A DNA stretch of 37,630 nt, taken from Clostridiales bacterium. Lineage in GTDB: Bacteria > Bacillota > Clostridia > Oscillospirales > CAG-272. The translations under genes and the position numbers were made by a program. Shown in pieces: positions 1 through 36,325 of the stretch; position 1 is the first letter of the stretch; each line of letters starts with the position of its first letter. The stretch is taken from positions 1 to 37,630 of the forward strand of contig JAAVYP010000027.1 of the NCBI GenBank assembly GCA_022791195.1, given 5' to 3'. Below the pieces are notes generated by a model, which saw nothing but the letters and a program-made list of their open reading frames with translations, ran no database searches and was not told the DNA's origin.

Positions 1-576
1 AAACCGGATTTGAACGTTGACACAGATAACGATGGCAAACCGGATGTGAACGTCGATACAGACAAAGACGGGAAACCGGATGTCAATATCGATACAGATG
101 ACGACGGCAAACCGGATATCAACATCGATACAGATGACGATGGCAAACCGGATGTGAACGTCGATACAGACAAAGACGGGAAACCGGATGTCAATATCGA
201 CACAGATAACGATGGCAAACCAGATGTAAACATCGATACAGACAAAGACGGGAAACCGGATGTGAACATCGACACAGATAACGATGGCAAACCGGACGTC
301 AACATCGACACGGATGACGACGGGAAACCGGACGTCAATATCGACACGGATGACGACGGCAAACCGGACGTCAACATCGACACGGATGACGACGGCAAAC
401 CGGACGTCAATATCGACACGGATGACGACGGCAAACCGGACATCAACATCGATACAGACAACGATGGCAAAGCCAATATCAATATTGACACCGATGGCGA
501 TAGAAAAGCCGATATCAACATTGACACCGATGGCGATGGTAAAGCAGACGCGAATATTGATGTTGATGGCGACGGT
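1..576 (+). repeat. 36-bp in-frame tandem repeat, 16 units
   Basis: Sixteen direct units of 36 bp run without a break and continue beyond the left edge. Units 9 to 12 (289-432) are nearly identical at base level, differing mainly at synonymous positions, while the last three units drift to GKAD and GDGDG variants. This fits recent slippage or unequal crossing-over in the middle of the array and an older distal end. Confidence 0.95.
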
Positions 577-747
577 ATTCCCGATATCAATATTATCGGT
601 GCTGAACCAAAAAAAGACCCGCCGGTCAAGGAGCCTCCTGTGACTTCTGATGATTCGCTCACAAAGCTGATGCTGGCTATACTTGGATGTATTCTTTCAG
701 CAACGGCGCTGCTCCTTTTAACAAGGAAAACCGAAGACAAAGCATAA
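1..747 (+). CDS. Asp-rich tandem-repeat surface protein, C-terminal part (5' end outside window)
   Basis: The frame is open from the first base, so the N-terminus lies upstream of the window. The visible 248 residues are sixteen 12-residue units of the form N-[VI]-D-T-D-x-D-G-K-P-D-[VI], then a Pro-rich linker, a hydrophobic segment (about residues 220-238) and a short charged tail ending RKTEDKA. DxDxDG is the core of calcium-binding loops (EF-hand, dockerin, thrombospondin type 3), so a calcium-rigidified stalk is likely. The C-terminus has the layout of a sortase sorting signal; the motif position reads EPPVTSDDS, close to the [SP]PxTG type but with Ser for Gly, so wall attachment is likely but unproven. 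The hydrophobic segment could instead be a plain membrane anchor. Two hairpins follow the stop. Confidence 0.8.
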   Translation, partial: KPDLNVDTDNDGKPDVNVDTDKDGKPDVNIDTDDDGKPDINIDTDDDGKPDVNVDTDKDGKPDVNIDTDNDGKPDVNIDTDKDGKPDVNIDTDNDGKPDVNIDTDDDGKPDVNIDTDDDGKPDVNIDTDDDGKPDVNIDTDDDGKPDINIDTDNDGKANINIDTDGDRKADINIDTDGDGKADANIDVDGDGIPDINIIGAEPKKDPPVKEPPVTSDDSLTKLMLAILGCILSATALLLLTRKTEDKA

Positions 748-816: not shown

Positions 817-847
817 AAGAAAGCGGCTTTTGGCCGCTTTCTTTTTT
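817..847 (+). terminator. Rho-independent terminator of the surface-protein gene
   Basis: GAAAGCGGC (819-827) pairs with GCCGCTTTC (833-841) around TTTTG and is followed by six T. This is a textbook intrinsic terminator on the plus strand. On the other strand the same stem lies just beyond the stop codon of the Cys-rich peptide gene and may serve it as well, with a weaker T-tract. Confidence 0.9.
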
Positions 848-862
848 GCAAATTCAGTCGAA

Positions 863-1018
863 TTAATTCCATCCGCAACCGCAGCGGTTTTGACTGCAAC
901 CGCAGCGATTTTGGCTGTATCCACAGCGGTTTTGACTGCAACCGCAGCGATTATGGCTGCGTCCACAGCGGTTCTGGCTGCATCTGCAGCGGTTTTGACA
1001 TAAACAGTTAAAAATCAT
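863..1018 (-). CDS. Small Cys-rich 7-residue-repeat peptide (51 aa)
   Basis: Reading the minus strand from ATG at 1018 gives a 51-residue peptide beginning MIFNCLCQNR and ending CGCGWN. It is built of a 7-residue (21-bp) unit, consensus C-G-C-S-Q-N-R, repeated about six times, with CGC alternating with CGR or CGY. It has 12 cysteines and also many Arg, Asn and Gln; there is no signal peptide or membrane segment. Support for real translation is a strong ribosome site (AAGGAAGGTGA, about 7 bases before the ATG), a TATAAT upstream, a stop shortly before a hairpin, and a repeat period that matches codon phase. I do not recognise the family. The spacing of paired cysteines suggests metal binding or disulfide cross-linking; a spore-coat type role is possible. 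The plus strand is also open here but has no ribosome site. Confidence 0.75.
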   Translation of the reverse strand: MIFNCLCQNRCRCSQNRCGRSHNRCGCSQNRCGYSQNRCGCSQNRCGCGWN

Positions 1019-1050
1019 TTCTTTTCACCTTCCTTATCGACTGTATTTTC

Positions 1051-1056
1051 ATTATA
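1051..1056 (-). promoter_or_regulatory. -10 element of the Cys-rich peptide gene
   Basis: On the minus strand the sequence reads CATCATATAATG, giving a perfect TATAAT about 33 bases before the ATG. No TTGACA-like -35 stands at 16-18 bases. The CATATAAT form also resembles -10 elements of sporulation sigma factors E and K, which is suggestive only. Confidence 0.5.
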
Positions 1057-1094
1057 TGATGGCCCGGTGAAAAGGTGATAGGTAGTAGGGACGC

Positions 1095-1127
1095 AAAAAG
1101 AAAAAGACAGCATATGCTGTCTTTTTT
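1095..1127 (-). terminator. Bidirectional terminator, 3' of the GH20-like gene
   Basis: AAAAAGACAGC (1101-1111) pairs with GCTGTCTTTTT (1116-1126) around ATAT. On the minus strand the stem lies just after the stop at 1132 and is followed by TTTTTCTTTTT; on the plus strand it is followed by a T-run as well. Confidence 0.85.
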
Positions 1128-1131
1128 GCTT

Positions 1132-3000
1132 TTAATAGATCATGCTGCCGGTAACGATATCTGAAAATTTGAATACATCCAGATAAGGAATATCGCGCGG
1201 TTTGTCGTAGCAATAGAAGTCGAGCACCGGCTGTTCCACTTCTTCAATTTTGTCGTATTTGCCGGCGCAGTAGTCTTTGAGTCTTTGTGCGGCTGAGCGC
1301 AAACGCTCTTTGGCGCCGCCCATGTAGATTTCCTGCACCTCAAAGCCCAGGGTTTTGTTTTCGTAATACCATTGATCCCGGAAGGCGTCTTCATATAATT
1401 CAAAACGGTTCAGAATTTCGGGAATCCGTTCGTTGGCGATGGCAAGCAGTGTCTCCTTATCACCGGCTTTATATGCTTTGCGTATATCGAGCGAAAGAGT
1501 AGCTTTCTTTTCCAACACCGAGCAAAGCAGGCCGAGAGAACGGAACATGTAGCCGAAGCGTTCATGATCAGCGCGGGCCAATAATTCTTCTGTGTGTTTT
1601 TTGTAAAGGGCAGGGTCCTGTTCGGTAACATGCAGGTCCATAATGCCGCCAAGCGGATCGTTGAACAGCAGGTATTTGCACTGTGATGTCGGATATGGCT
1701 TTTCGGGGTCATAATTGACGCCATGGTTCGGGCAGTCTAAGGTCAAAAAGTCTTCTAAAGAGAGACCGTACAGCTCTTGCAGACGCTGATCCAGCCATTC
1801 GTTTGTCACTTCATCCTGATAGCAGTATTCAGCAAACTGCAAAAGCGCCGGAATCACAGAGAATTGCGAGGCCTCGCCGCCTTTATCGCCCCAACCGGTC
1901 GTAAAGACCGTTTTGACCTTGTGCTTTTTGCACATTCTTAAATGGCCGGCGCTGTTCTTAAGCGAAAGCGTGTTGTTGGGCGCTTGACCGATCCATTTCC
2001 ATGCGCCGCCGGCAAAGGCAAATTCGCCGCCGAACTGCTTGTGGCATTCCATCATGTTGTCAGCGGTGGCCTCATCGCAGTAATAGTCCCAGTAAATCGG
2101 AATGACTTCTTTGGGCTTCGCGTTGACCGACTCTTCGCTGAGACGCTCGGTCGCGGTGTAATAACCGCCGCCCAGCTGCGCGCGGAAGAACATGTCGCTC
2201 CACATCATCGTGGTAAAGCCATAGCGCTTTGCGATTTCCAGCACCTTGTCCAAATGCATGTGCATAAGCTCGGTGACTTCTTTTTTCTCTCCGGTTTGGG
2301 TGAGGTATTTGCCGCGGCCTACATTGTGTGCCTCGTCAAGGCCCAAATTGATGCGGCGGCTGGTGAAGCATTCGGCGCAGGTTTTCAGCATAGCGTCGAT
2401 TAAGTCGTATGTCTTGGGATCGTTAATGTTTAAAATGTAGTCGATATCGCGAATTTCCTCAAAAGCAACCCATCTGAAAATACCATTTAAATGGGCGAGC
2501 ACCTGTATGCAGGGAATCAGTTCCATACCGAGAGAAAGGGCGTAAGCGTCCAGCTCTTTCAGCTCTGCTTTGGTGAACCGGCCGCGCATGTGGCCGAAAT
2601 AGGGATATTCTTCAATTTCATATGTATCTTCGGTATACAGCATCATGGCGTTGTAGCCCATGGCCGATAAATTCCGCATGAGTCTTTTGGCGCCGTCAAT
2701 GCTGAGCACGGCGTTGCGAGAGCAGTCAGGCATATAGCCAAGTGTGTCGAAAGAGGGTTCTTCGGAAAGTGTTTCTTGCTCAGATTTATAGAAAGCAGGC
2801 AGTCGGCCAAGCGCTCTGGTAAAATCAGAAATTTTGTTGTATTCGATTTTTACGCCGTTGTTTTCTTTAACTAAGCGCAGTCCCTTCTCTGTTTTCTCGG
2901 CACGAACCGGGATCGTTCCGCCCAGCTGCACGCCGGTTTCGATAGAGAGCTCATTAATAACATAAGCAAGCTCTTTTTCGCCAGTGAATTGAATTTGCAT
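1132..3000 (-). CDS. GH20-like beta-N-acetylhexosaminidase, cytoplasmic
   Basis: A 622-residue protein that probably releases terminal GlcNAc or GalNAc from glycans. A (beta/alpha)8 GH20-type region starts near residue 85 with DCSRN (92-96), the substrate-binding Asp/Arg strand of the family, and the catalytic Asp-Glu pair is visible at 222-223 in INLGLDEAHNVG, where the neighbouring Asp would orient the N-acetyl group. Residues 1-80 resemble the non-catalytic domain that precedes GH20 barrels. The DE context (GLDE) differs from the usual GGDE, so the exact subgroup and sugar preference are unsure. There is no signal peptide. I start at 3000 because AAAGGATG stands 8 bases upstream; 42 bases of open frame further 5' lack this. 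Monocistronic, with a leader of about 140 bases and its own terminator. Confidence 0.8.
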   Translation of the reverse strand: MQIQFTGEKELAYVINELSIETGVQLGGTIPVRAEKTEKGLRLVKENNGVKIEYNKISDFTRALGRLPAFYKSEQETLSEEPSFDTLGYMPDCSRNAVLSIDGAKRLMRNLSAMGYNAMMLYTEDTYEIEEYPYFGHMRGRFTKAELKELDAYALSLGMELIPCIQVLAHLNGIFRWVAFEEIRDIDYILNINDPKTYDLIDAMLKTCAECFTSRRINLGLDEAHNVGRGKYLTQTGEKKEVTELMHMHLDKVLEIAKRYGFTTMMWSDMFFRAQLGGGYYTATERLSEESVNAKPKEVIPIYWDYYCDEATADNMMECHKQFGGEFAFAGGAWKWIGQAPNNTLSLKNSAGHLRMCKKHKVKTVFTTGWGDKGGEASQFSVIPALLQFAEYCYQDEVTNEWLDQRLQELYGLSLEDFLTLDCPNHGVNYDPEKPYPTSQCKYLLFNDPLGGIMDLHVTEQDPALYKKHTEELLARADHERFGYMFRSLGLLCSVLEKKATLSLDIRKAYKAGDKETLLAIANERIPEILNRFELYEDAFRDQWYYENKTLGFEVQEIYMGGAKERLRSAAQRLKDYCAGKYDKIEEVEQPVLDFYCYDKPRDIPYLDVFKFSDIVTGSMIY

Positions 3001-3149
3001 GTTGTTTTCATCCTTTCGGTTTGGCAAGCTGCCTTGCATCATGTTGCCTTGTTTGCAGGGTCTTAAAAATTGACCGTTGCAAGCTGTTTCGGTTTATGAT
3101 ATCATTAAACAAGATCTTGCCGATTGTATTTTGATTAAGATTTGGTGTC

Positions 3150-9537: not shown

Positions 9538-9567
9538 AATTTATTGAAAACAAGAGGAAAAGAGTGT

Positions 9568-10704
9568 ATGAAAATGACAAAAATCGATATATTTTCGGGC
9601 TTTTTAGGCGCGGGCAAAACAACGCTGATTAAAAAATTAATCGCCCAAGCTTATGCGGGCGAAAAAATTGTGTTAATCGAAAATGAATTTGGCGAAATTG
9701 GCATCGACGGTGGTTTTTTGAGCGAAGCCGGCATAAATATAACTGAGATGAACTCGGGCTGTATCTGCTGTTCTTTGGTGGGCGATTTTACAAAGGCGCT
9801 TAGCAAAGTGATTGAAGAATATGCACCCGAACGCATTATTATCGAACCCTCCGGCGTGGGCAAACTTTCGGATGTTGTGGCGGCTGTGCAGAGCGTGCCG
9901 ATGAAAGACGTGGTGTTAGGCGCACGTGTTTGTGTAGCCGACGCCAAAAAATGCGTGATGTATGCAAAAAATTTTGGCGAATTTTTCAATAATCAAATTG
10001 AAAATGCATTTGCTGTCATTTTAAGTCATACCGGCGGCCTTGCGCAGGACAAGCTGGACAAAGCGGTTGCTGTGGTGAAAAAACTAAATCCGAATGCGGT
10101 TTTGGTCACCACCGATTGGGATCAAATTGACGGCTCGCAAATCAAAGAGGCGATTGAAGGCGGAAATGAGCTTGCCAAGACCATGATGGAAGAGATGAAG
10201 GCAGAGCATGATGTTTGCCCGACTTGCGGTCACCACCATGACGAGCACCACGAACACCACGAACATCATGAATGTGAGCATGATCACGCCCATCACGAGC
10301 ATTGTCATGCGCACGAACATGATCACGAACACGATCATTGTCACGAACATGAACATCATCACGATCATGAACACCATCATCACGAAGGATGCGGTTGCCA
10401 TGGCGAGCATCATCACCATCATGCCGACGAGGTGTTTGAGAGCATTGGCGGTCAAAGCGCCAGACGGTATACAAGGGAAGAAATTCAAAATGCACTGAAC
10501 GCGCTGGAAAACCAAGAAGCCTATGGCATGGTTTTGCGGGCAAAAGGCATTGTTGAGAGCACCGACGGCAGTTGGATTCACTTTGATTATGTGCCTGGTG
10601 AGCCGGATGTACGAACCGGCGGGCCTGATACAACCGGCAAAATTTGCGTGATTGGTTCGGGGCTGAATAAAGAAGCACTGAAAGAACTGTTCCGCTTCGA
10701 TTAA
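9568..10704 (+). CDS. G3E GTPase, CobW/COG0523 metallochaperone with His-rich loop
   Basis: A 378-residue GTP-dependent metal chaperone of the COG0523 group, which load zinc or other transition metals into client proteins. Walker A is GFLGAGKTTL (11-20), the switch-type IENEFGE follows (37-43), and the hallmark metal site GCICC is at 64-68. Between the GTPase and the CobW C-terminal domain (about 290-378) lies a loop of roughly 70 residues (217-287) with CPTC, about 36 histidines and a GCGC, evidently a metal-binding store. I start at 9568 (AGAGGA upstream) rather than at an earlier TTG. The client is unknown; its placement ahead of a second G3E protein and a Fe-S activase suggests it supplies that system. 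Confidence 0.92.
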   Translation: MKMTKIDIFSGFLGAGKTTLIKKLIAQAYAGEKIVLIENEFGEIGIDGGFLSEAGINITEMNSGCICCSLVGDFTKALSKVIEEYAPERIIIEPSGVGKLSDVVAAVQSVPMKDVVLGARVCVADAKKCVMYAKNFGEFFNNQIENAFAVILSHTGGLAQDKLDKAVAVVKKLNPNAVLVTTDWDQIDGSQIKEAIEGGNELAKTMMEEMKAEHDVCPTCGHHHDEHHEHHEHHECEHDHAHHEHCHAHEHDHEHDHCHEHEHHHDHEHHHHEGCGCHGEHHHHHADEVFESIGGQSARRYTREEIQNALNALENQEAYGMVLRAKGIVESTDGSWIHFDYVPGEPDVRTGGPDTTGKICVIGSGLNKEALKELFRFD

Positions 10705-10840: not shown

Positions 10841-11782
10841 ATGGAAATACCTGTTTATCTGTTTACCGGTTTTTTAGAAGCGGGTAAGACGAAATTTATA
10901 CAAGAGACGTTAGAGGACCCGCGTTTTACCGACGGTACATCAACCCTTCTTCTCGTTTGTGAAGAGGGGGAGACCGAGTATGATGAAAAGCGCTTTCCGG
11001 CGGACGGTGTGCACATTGCCTTCATTGAAAATGAAGAGGATTTAACAGAAGAGAAAATCAAATCCCTTTGCGTCACCTATCAGGCGGAAAGAGTGCTGGT
11101 CGAGTATAACGGCATGTGGAAAAACAACTCCTTTTTTAGCGCCATGCCCAAGGACTTTGTGATTTATCAGGAGATTTGTTTTGTGGATTCAACTACTTTT
11201 CTCATGTATAATCAAAACATGAGAGCACAGGTTGTGGATAAATTCAGCACGGCCGAACTCATTGTATTTAACCGGTTTATGGATAAATACGGCAAGATGG
11301 AATTTCATAAAATTGTCAGGGGACTCAGCCGGTCAGCGAATATCATCTATGAATATATGAATGGCGAGGCCGTGCAGGATGATATTGAAGACCCGCTGCC
11401 CTTTGATAAAGAGGCGGACGCGTTTGCGGTGCAGGATGCAGACTATGCGTTGTGGTATCGGGATTTTGGCGAAAACCTGATGGATTATCAGGATAAAACC
11501 GTTACTTTTACGTGTATTTTTTTACGGGATGATTCCATGCCGGCGGGTTATCTAGCTGCCGGTCGGCCGATCATGACTTGCTGTGTTGATGATATACAGT
11601 TTTCCGGCTTTGTGTGTCATTTTCCGGGCGGAGAGCTGCCGGCCGAACAAAGCTGGGGGAAATTAAAAGCTAAGATCGACATTCGGTTCAGCGAAGTATA
11701 CGGACAGGAAGGGCCTGTGTTAGAGTGCCTTGAGGTGACTCCTTGTGAGAAGCCGGAACCGGAGGTAGCAACGTTTTATTGA
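10841..11782 (+). CDS. Divergent G3E GTPase-like protein with extra C-terminal domain
   Basis: A 313-residue protein. It opens with a CobW-type Walker A, FTGFLEAGKTKFI (8-20), and keeps the overall G3E strand order, but lacks the GCxCC metal site, has VEYNGMW where the switch Glu-Pro-Ser-Gly stands in relatives, and has no His-rich loop. After about residue 205 the CobW C-terminal domain seems replaced by a beta-rich module with TCCVDDIQFSGFVCHF (246-261), reminiscent of DUF1980/YcgQ-type OB folds. It sits 136 bases after the His-rich GTPase and 18 bases before the activase, so it is very probably in the same operon. It may hydrolyse GTP without handling metal by the usual route; the partner is unknown. 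Confidence 0.7.
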   Translation: MEIPVYLFTGFLEAGKTKFIQETLEDPRFTDGTSTLLLVCEEGETEYDEKRFPADGVHIAFIENEEDLTEEKIKSLCVTYQAERVLVEYNGMWKNNSFFSAMPKDFVIYQEICFVDSTTFLMYNQNMRAQVVDKFSTAELIVFNRFMDKYGKMEFHKIVRGLSRSANIIYEYMNGEAVQDDIEDPLPFDKEADAFAVQDADYALWYRDFGENLMDYQDKTVTFTCIFLRDDSMPAGYLAAGRPIMTCCVDDIQFSGFVCHFPGGELPAEQSWGKLKAKIDIRFSEVYGQEGPVLECLEVTPCEKPEPEVATFY

Positions 11783-36296: not shown

Positions 36297-36325
36297 ATTA
36301 TATGGTTTTATTGTGCGTTTGTCAA
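36297..36325 (-). promoter_or_regulatory. Consensus promoter of the MATE gene
   Basis: On the minus strand TTGACA (36325-36320), 17-base spacer, TATAAT (36302-36297). Thirty bases before the ATG. Confidence 0.92.

What the first reader, a model, noticed from the sequence alone, without database searches (positions are those of the whole stretch)
863..1018. Missed gene for a 51-residue peptide with 12 cysteines in a 7-residue repeat
The minus strand encodes a strictly periodic C-G-C-S-Q-N-R peptide with a near-perfect ribosome site, a TATAAT and a hairpin after the stop. It is far below usual length cut-offs and matches no family I recognise. Paired cysteines at fixed spacing suggest a metal-binding or disulfide-cross-linked structural peptide, possibly of a spore coat. 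It lies beside a repeat-built surface protein.
Basis: partly seen in the sequence, partly recalled or inferred. Interest (0 to 1): 0.78.

Follow-up and report, generated by a model that had tools for sequence, protein, structure and literature searches.

The report
Tiny cysteine-repeat peptide gene, genus-restricted
A real but very rare small gene, found so far in only two related spore-forming bacterial species, encodes a 51-65 residue peptide built from a cysteine- and arginine-rich seven-residue repeat that probably cross-links spore-coat proteins or binds metal; its function is not shown.

Summary
In detail: window 863-1018 (minus) encodes a 51-residue peptide with 12 Cys, built from six 7-residue units (consensus N-R-C-G-C-S-Q), with a strong ribosome site, a CATATAAT box and a hairpin after the stop. 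An orthologue with 17 Cys and eight units lies at the same place, downstream of the same GH20 gene, in a sister species (L004). Between the two, changes are mainly synonymous only in the cysteine frame (pN/pS 0.23; 0.44-2.3 in the other five frames; permutation P about 0.0005), all 12 window Cys are kept, and promoter, ribosome site and hairpin are 87-92% identical while flanking genes have pS 0.61-0.67. It is very probably a real gene. No other relative was found in samples of 395 family, 394 order and 391 class genomes, in viral, phage and plasmid collections, Pfam, NCBIfam or PDB. The genus carries SpoIVA, SigE and SigK. The promoter boxes (AC-16-CATATAAT) equal those reported for a C. difficile sigma-K promoter, but TATAAT also fits sigma-A. 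Best reading: a mother-cell-made, thiol-cross-linked spore-coat microprotein (about 0.4); rival: metallothionein-like metal binder (about 0.3). The adjacent surface protein is not conserved beside it.

The parts
863..1018 (-). ORF of the 51-residue, 12-Cys heptad-repeat peptide (stop codon included)
   Evidence: orthologue L004:3001-3198; frame-specific purifying selection
869..994 (-). six 21-bp / 7-residue units, N-R-C-[GR]-[CRY]-[SG]-[QHW]
1026..1035 (-). ribosome-binding site AAGGAAGGTG, identical in the sister species
1051..1058 (-). -10 box CATATAAT (mother-cell sigma type; also contains TATAAT)
   Evidence: C. difficile sigK P2 has the same boxes (PMC3789822)
1073..1077 (-). TCACC, -35 region candidate with the AC of sigma-K, 16 bases before the -10 box; conserved in the sister species
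817..843 (-). hairpin after the stop, conserved stem with changed loop; probably a two-way terminator shared with the convergent gene
1100..1127 (.). hairpin terminator between the upstream GH20 gene and this gene, so the peptide gene is its own transcription unit

Best explanation
It is a genuine, single-gene transcription unit that encodes a small, basic, cytosolically made peptide (5.8 kDa, 12 Cys, 8 Arg, no Asp/Glu/Lys). Shown here: the frame is under purifying selection, and promoter, ribosome site and terminator hairpin are conserved in a sister species while the number of repeats varies. Inferred: it is made in the mother cell late in sporulation under sigma-K, needs no signal peptide because the mother cell surrounds the forespore, and is laid down in the coat or exosporium, where the regularly spaced Cys pairs (C-x-C every seven residues, each preceded by Asn/Ser-Arg) form intermolecular disulfides, or shared metal thiolates, that tie larger coat proteins together. 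Repeat number can change freely because each unit is an equivalent cross-linking point.
For: Coding: orthologue at the same locus; pN/pS 0.23 only in this frame, permutation P 0.00045; all 12 window Cys kept although 9 of 51 residues differ; 55/60 identical bases 5' of the ATG and 52/60 from the stop on, with neighbours at pS 0.61-0.67. Sporulation: SpoIVA in all four genomes of the genus; SigK and SigE in the sister genome. Promoter AC-N16-CATATAAT occurs twice in the window against 0.11 expected and matches the C. difficile sigma-K boxes, -35 AC and -10 CATATAAT (PMC3789822). Cys-rich proteins are known to build the outer spore layers of Firmicutes: CdeC, CdeM, ExsY, CotY, CotZ (PMC6101409).
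Against: No expression or proteomic data. TATAAT with TTCACC 17 bases upstream in the sister species is also a fair sigma-A promoter. The other promoter match in the window lies before a MATE transporter gene, so the boxes are not specific to sporulation. Two of four species of the genus show no copy although they have SpoIVA. In the window's own genome SigK was not clearly found (82.6% complete). Cys content (24-26%) is far above known coat proteins (about 9%).
Confidence: 0.42

Rival explanations
1. A metallothionein-like peptide: it stays in the reducing cytosol and its C-x-C thiolates bind Zn(II), Cu(I) or Cd(II) in clusters, buffering or storing metal.
For: Size, 24-26% Cys, repeated C-x-C, basic residue next to Cys, no acidic and few hydrophobic residues are the composition of metallothioneins (own knowledge). 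No signal peptide. The promoter can be read as sigma-A.
Against: No match to any metallothionein family in Pfam or NCBIfam nor to PDB chains. No metal-responsive regulator or transporter beside it in either species. Bacterial metallothioneins studied so far use His as well and fold as a zinc finger (PMC10612145); this one has a single His.
Confidence: 0.3
2. A protamine- or nucleic-acid-binding-like peptide: Arg-rich units bind DNA or RNA and Cys lock the complex.
For: Net charge +8 and +11 with invariant Arg in all 14 units.
Against: Arg is spaced one per seven residues, less dense than in protamines; no known bacterial precedent with this layout (own knowledge).
Confidence: 0.08
3. Not a protein gene: a small RNA, or an array of DNA sites (each unit holds the near-palindrome AACCGCTGCGGTT), that merely happens to be open.
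For: Strongly conserved promoter and hairpin; CGC of Arg never changes in 14 units; the window copy folds somewhat better than shuffles (z -2.6).
Against: The sister copy does not fold better than shuffles (z -0.5) and has another structure; no Rfam family reaches its gathering score; the palindrome is broken in most units; changes are confined to the third codon position of the Cys frame (13 of 22); ribosome site, ATG and stop are kept.
Confidence: 0.06
4. A real peptide of another role, for example a secreted, modified or antimicrobial peptide.
For: Small Cys-rich peptides often have such roles (own knowledge).
Against: No leader, no signal peptide, no modification enzyme, transporter or immunity gene beside it in either species.
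Confidence: 0.1

Closest known systems
Cys-rich exosporium and crust proteins (C. difficile CdeC and CdeM; ExsY; B. subtilis CotY and CotZ)
   Same: Cys-rich, short internal repeats (CdeC has NPC and CCRQGKGK repeats), lineage-restricted, thought to act by disulfide cross-linking (PMC6101409)
   Different: Those have 161-405 residues and about 9% Cys; this one has 51-65 residues and 24-26% Cys in a pure heptad array, with no detectable sequence relationship and no evidence of location in spores
Metallothioneins (e.g. cyanobacterial SmtA, PflQ2MT)
   Same: Small, Cys-dense, C-x-C motifs, few hydrophobic residues
   Different: No family match; exact 7-residue period; one His only; Arg-rich; no metal-linked context
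Mother-cell sigma-K promoters of Clostridia
   Same: -35 AC and -10 CATATAAT, as in C. difficile sigK P2 (PMC3789822)
   Different: Untested here; the same sequence can serve sigma-A

Membership tests
Protein-coding gene (as opposed to chance ORF) | Frame-specific purifying selection in a relative | tested here: met
   pN/pS 0.23 in this frame against 0.44-2.3 in the other five; permutation P 0.00045
Protein-coding gene (as opposed to chance ORF) | Conserved ribosome site, start and stop | tested here: met
Protein-coding gene (as opposed to chance ORF) | Transcript and peptide detected | not testable with these tools
   no expression data
Spore coat/exosporium Cys-rich protein | Host makes spores | tested here: met
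   SpoIVA in 4 of 4 genomes of the genus; SigK and SigE in the sister genome
Spore coat/exosporium Cys-rich protein | Promoter of sigma-E or sigma-K type | tested here: inconclusive
   AC-16-CATATAAT present and conserved, but it overlaps a sigma-A -10 box
Spore coat/exosporium Cys-rich protein | Sequence homology to CotY/CotZ/ExsY/CdeC families | tested here: not met
   no Pfam or NCBIfam match
Spore coat/exosporium Cys-rich protein | Present in purified spores | not testable with these tools
   needs proteomics
Metallothionein | Small, more than 20% Cys, C-x-C motifs | tested here: met
   12/51 and 17/65 Cys
Metallothionein | Match to a metallothionein profile or solved chain | tested here: not met
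Metallothionein | Binds metal in clusters; metal-induced | not testable with these tools
   needs biochemistry

The most novel reading that the evidence does not exclude
A previously undescribed family of heptad C-x-C/Arg repeat microproteins that assembles, by disulfide or metal bridging between identical units, into a cross-linked scaffold of the spore surface in one bacterial genus, its length tuned by gain and loss of 21-bp units.
Probability: 0.3. Interest if true: 0.6.

Novelty: new variant of a known kind. Interest (0 to 1): 0.42.

Why it matters
It is an orphan, genus-restricted gene whose coding status can be argued from sequence alone, with about a quarter of its residues cysteine in a fixed seven-residue register. 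If it is a coat protein it would be among the simplest thiol cross-linkers known, and a minimal model of how coats evolve by changing repeat number. If it binds metal it would be an unusual repeat metallothionein in an anaerobe. It also shows that small repeat genes can be told from chance arrays with just one sister genome.

Tried and rejected
Wider relatives: an alignment profile of the two proteins against samples of 395 family, 394 order and 391 class genomes gave only these two; the ten weaker family hits were off-frame stretches of ordinary genes, and the one class hit (L074) is the antisense of a tandem repeat in an FkbH-like gene. A degenerate DNA pattern search failed because my pattern did not match even the window itself, so it is no evidence. 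Conserved 5' DNA in other genomes: short chance matches inside other genes. Other CxC-x4-CxC genes in the genus: none; counts were no higher than the reversed control pattern and the hits were chance frames. Leader peptide or attenuator: rejected, since a hairpin and a convergent gene follow it. Modified-peptide precursor: rejected, no enzymes nearby. Alternative open frame on the same strand (Ala-rich, TAAVAVK): rejected, pN/pS 2.3. Structured RNA: rejected. Structure prediction: uninformative, mean pLDDT 45 with two sequences, so no fold search was made. sigK/dpaA/spoIVA upstream regions gave CATA-type -10 boxes but no clear rule to separate sigma-K from sigma-A.

Full report
What is there. 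The minus strand at 863-1018 encodes a 51-residue peptide with 12 cysteines. It starts with MIFNCLCQ, then six 7-residue units N-R-C-x-x-x-x, then N-stop. The DNA is a 21-bp tandem array (875-999). In the six window units and the eight units of the sister species, Arg (always CGC) and the first Cys never change; the second Cys is present in 10 of 14 and otherwise Arg or Tyr. The peptide is basic (8 Arg, no Lys, Asp or Glu; pI about 9.1) with one each of Phe, Tyr and Trp.

It is a separate transcription unit. Upstream on the same strand lies a GH20 family glycosidase gene (1132-3042; Pfam GH20 and GH20C), ended by a hairpin at 1100-1127. Then come TCACC (1077-1073), CATATAAT (1058-1051), AAGGAAGGTG (1035-1026) and ATG at 1018-1016. 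An 11-bp hairpin at 843-817 follows the stop. The next gene, the repeat-built surface protein, is convergent (ends at 747), so the hairpin probably serves both genes.

Orthologue. A search of one genome per species found one relative, on JAAWDG010000014.1 (MAG, 'Clostridiales bacterium isolate ABMPRH_136_1'; L004); the same 236,424-base contig is G001 in the genome search, a species of the same genus. It encodes 65 residues with 17 Cys and eight units, downstream of the orthologous GH20 and ksgA genes. Beyond it the neighbourhoods differ: L004 has a small zinc-ribbon-like ORF and five tRNA genes, tRNA-Cys among them. The surface protein is therefore not a linked partner.

Coding test. A tandem array is periodic in all frames and unit gain or loss (21 bp) never shifts the frame, so neither counts as evidence. 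The substitution pattern does. In the 51 aligned codons 22 bases differ, 13 of them at third positions; pS 0.394, pN 0.091, ratio 0.23 in the Cys frame, against 2.33, 1.90, 1.49, 0.44 and 1.03 in the other five, all of which have stops in the aligned stretch. When the same changes are placed at random, as few amino-acid changes arise in 0.045% of 20,000 trials. One codon changed from AGA to CGT and kept Arg. Comparison among the 14 units gives the same answer: pS 0.58, pN 0.17 in this frame only. All 12 window Cys are kept. Limits: only two sequences, and exchange between units may homogenise them.

Regulatory conservation. The 60 bases before the ATG are 92% identical and the 60 from the stop on 87%, with the hairpin stem intact and its loop changed. 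The flanking GH20 and ksgA genes have pS 0.61 and 0.67, so unconstrained DNA would have diverged far more. The transcript's ends and translation start are thus under selection.

Distribution. Two of the four genomes of the genus carry it. In G003 (93% complete) other DNA follows the GH20 gene and no copy was found; in G002 (68% complete) the contig ends there. Nothing credible turned up in samples of 395 family, 394 order and 391 class genomes, viral contigs, phages, plasmids, Pfam and NCBIfam or PDB. It is an orphan of one genus as far as searched; no metagenome scan was allowed.

Function. The genus makes, or descends from makers of, spores: SpoIVA in all four genomes, and SigK (over the cut-off of PRK05803) and SigE in the sister genome. 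The window's genome (82.6% complete) gave a clear SigE-type hit and no separate SigK; incompleteness may explain this. In C. difficile the sigma-K -35 is AC and the sigK P2 promoter has -10 CATATAAT (PMC3789822); here AC stands 16 bases before CATATAAT in both species. AC-N16-CATATAAT occurs twice in the window with 0.11 expected, but the other copy precedes a MATE transporter gene, and TATAAT with TTCACC 17 bases upstream in L004 is also a tolerable sigma-A promoter. So a mother-cell promoter is likely, not shown. With no signal peptide and no partner genes, the two credible roles are a thiol cross-linker of the spore surface, as proposed for Cys-rich CdeC, CdeM, CotY and CotZ (PMC6101409), and a metallothionein-like metal binder. 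I put the first slightly ahead because of the promoter, the spore genes, the free variation in repeat number and the narrow distribution. A structure model was uninformative.

Verdict. Real gene: about 0.93. Role in the spore surface: about 0.4; metal binding: about 0.3. No known family can be claimed: the homology tests for both were negative.

Noticed in passing
1-747 (+): Surface-type protein of at least 248 residues built of a 12-residue repeat K-P-D-[VI]-N-[VI]-D-T-D-x-D-G with a C-terminal membrane segment and basic tail; cut by the contig end. Its Asp pattern suggests calcium binding.
   Followed up: partly
9544-10704 (+): CobW-type GTPase with GCICC motif and a very long His-rich stretch, followed by a second CobW-like gene (10841-11782): probable metal-handling pair.
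   Followed up: no
36297-36322 (-): Second AC-N16-CATATAAT match, upstream of a MATE transporter gene; either a sporulation-time promoter or a sign that these boxes are not specific.
   Followed up: no
L004:3780-4369: Five tRNA genes (Cys, Gly, Phe, Asp, Val) lie close downstream of the orthologue, in place of the surface protein gene of the window.
   Followed up: no
L040-L043, upstream of the dpaA-like gene: All four genomes of the genus keep TTGGCAAGAG ... CATATYATGTA before this gene; probably the genus form of a mother-cell promoter.
   Followed up: partly
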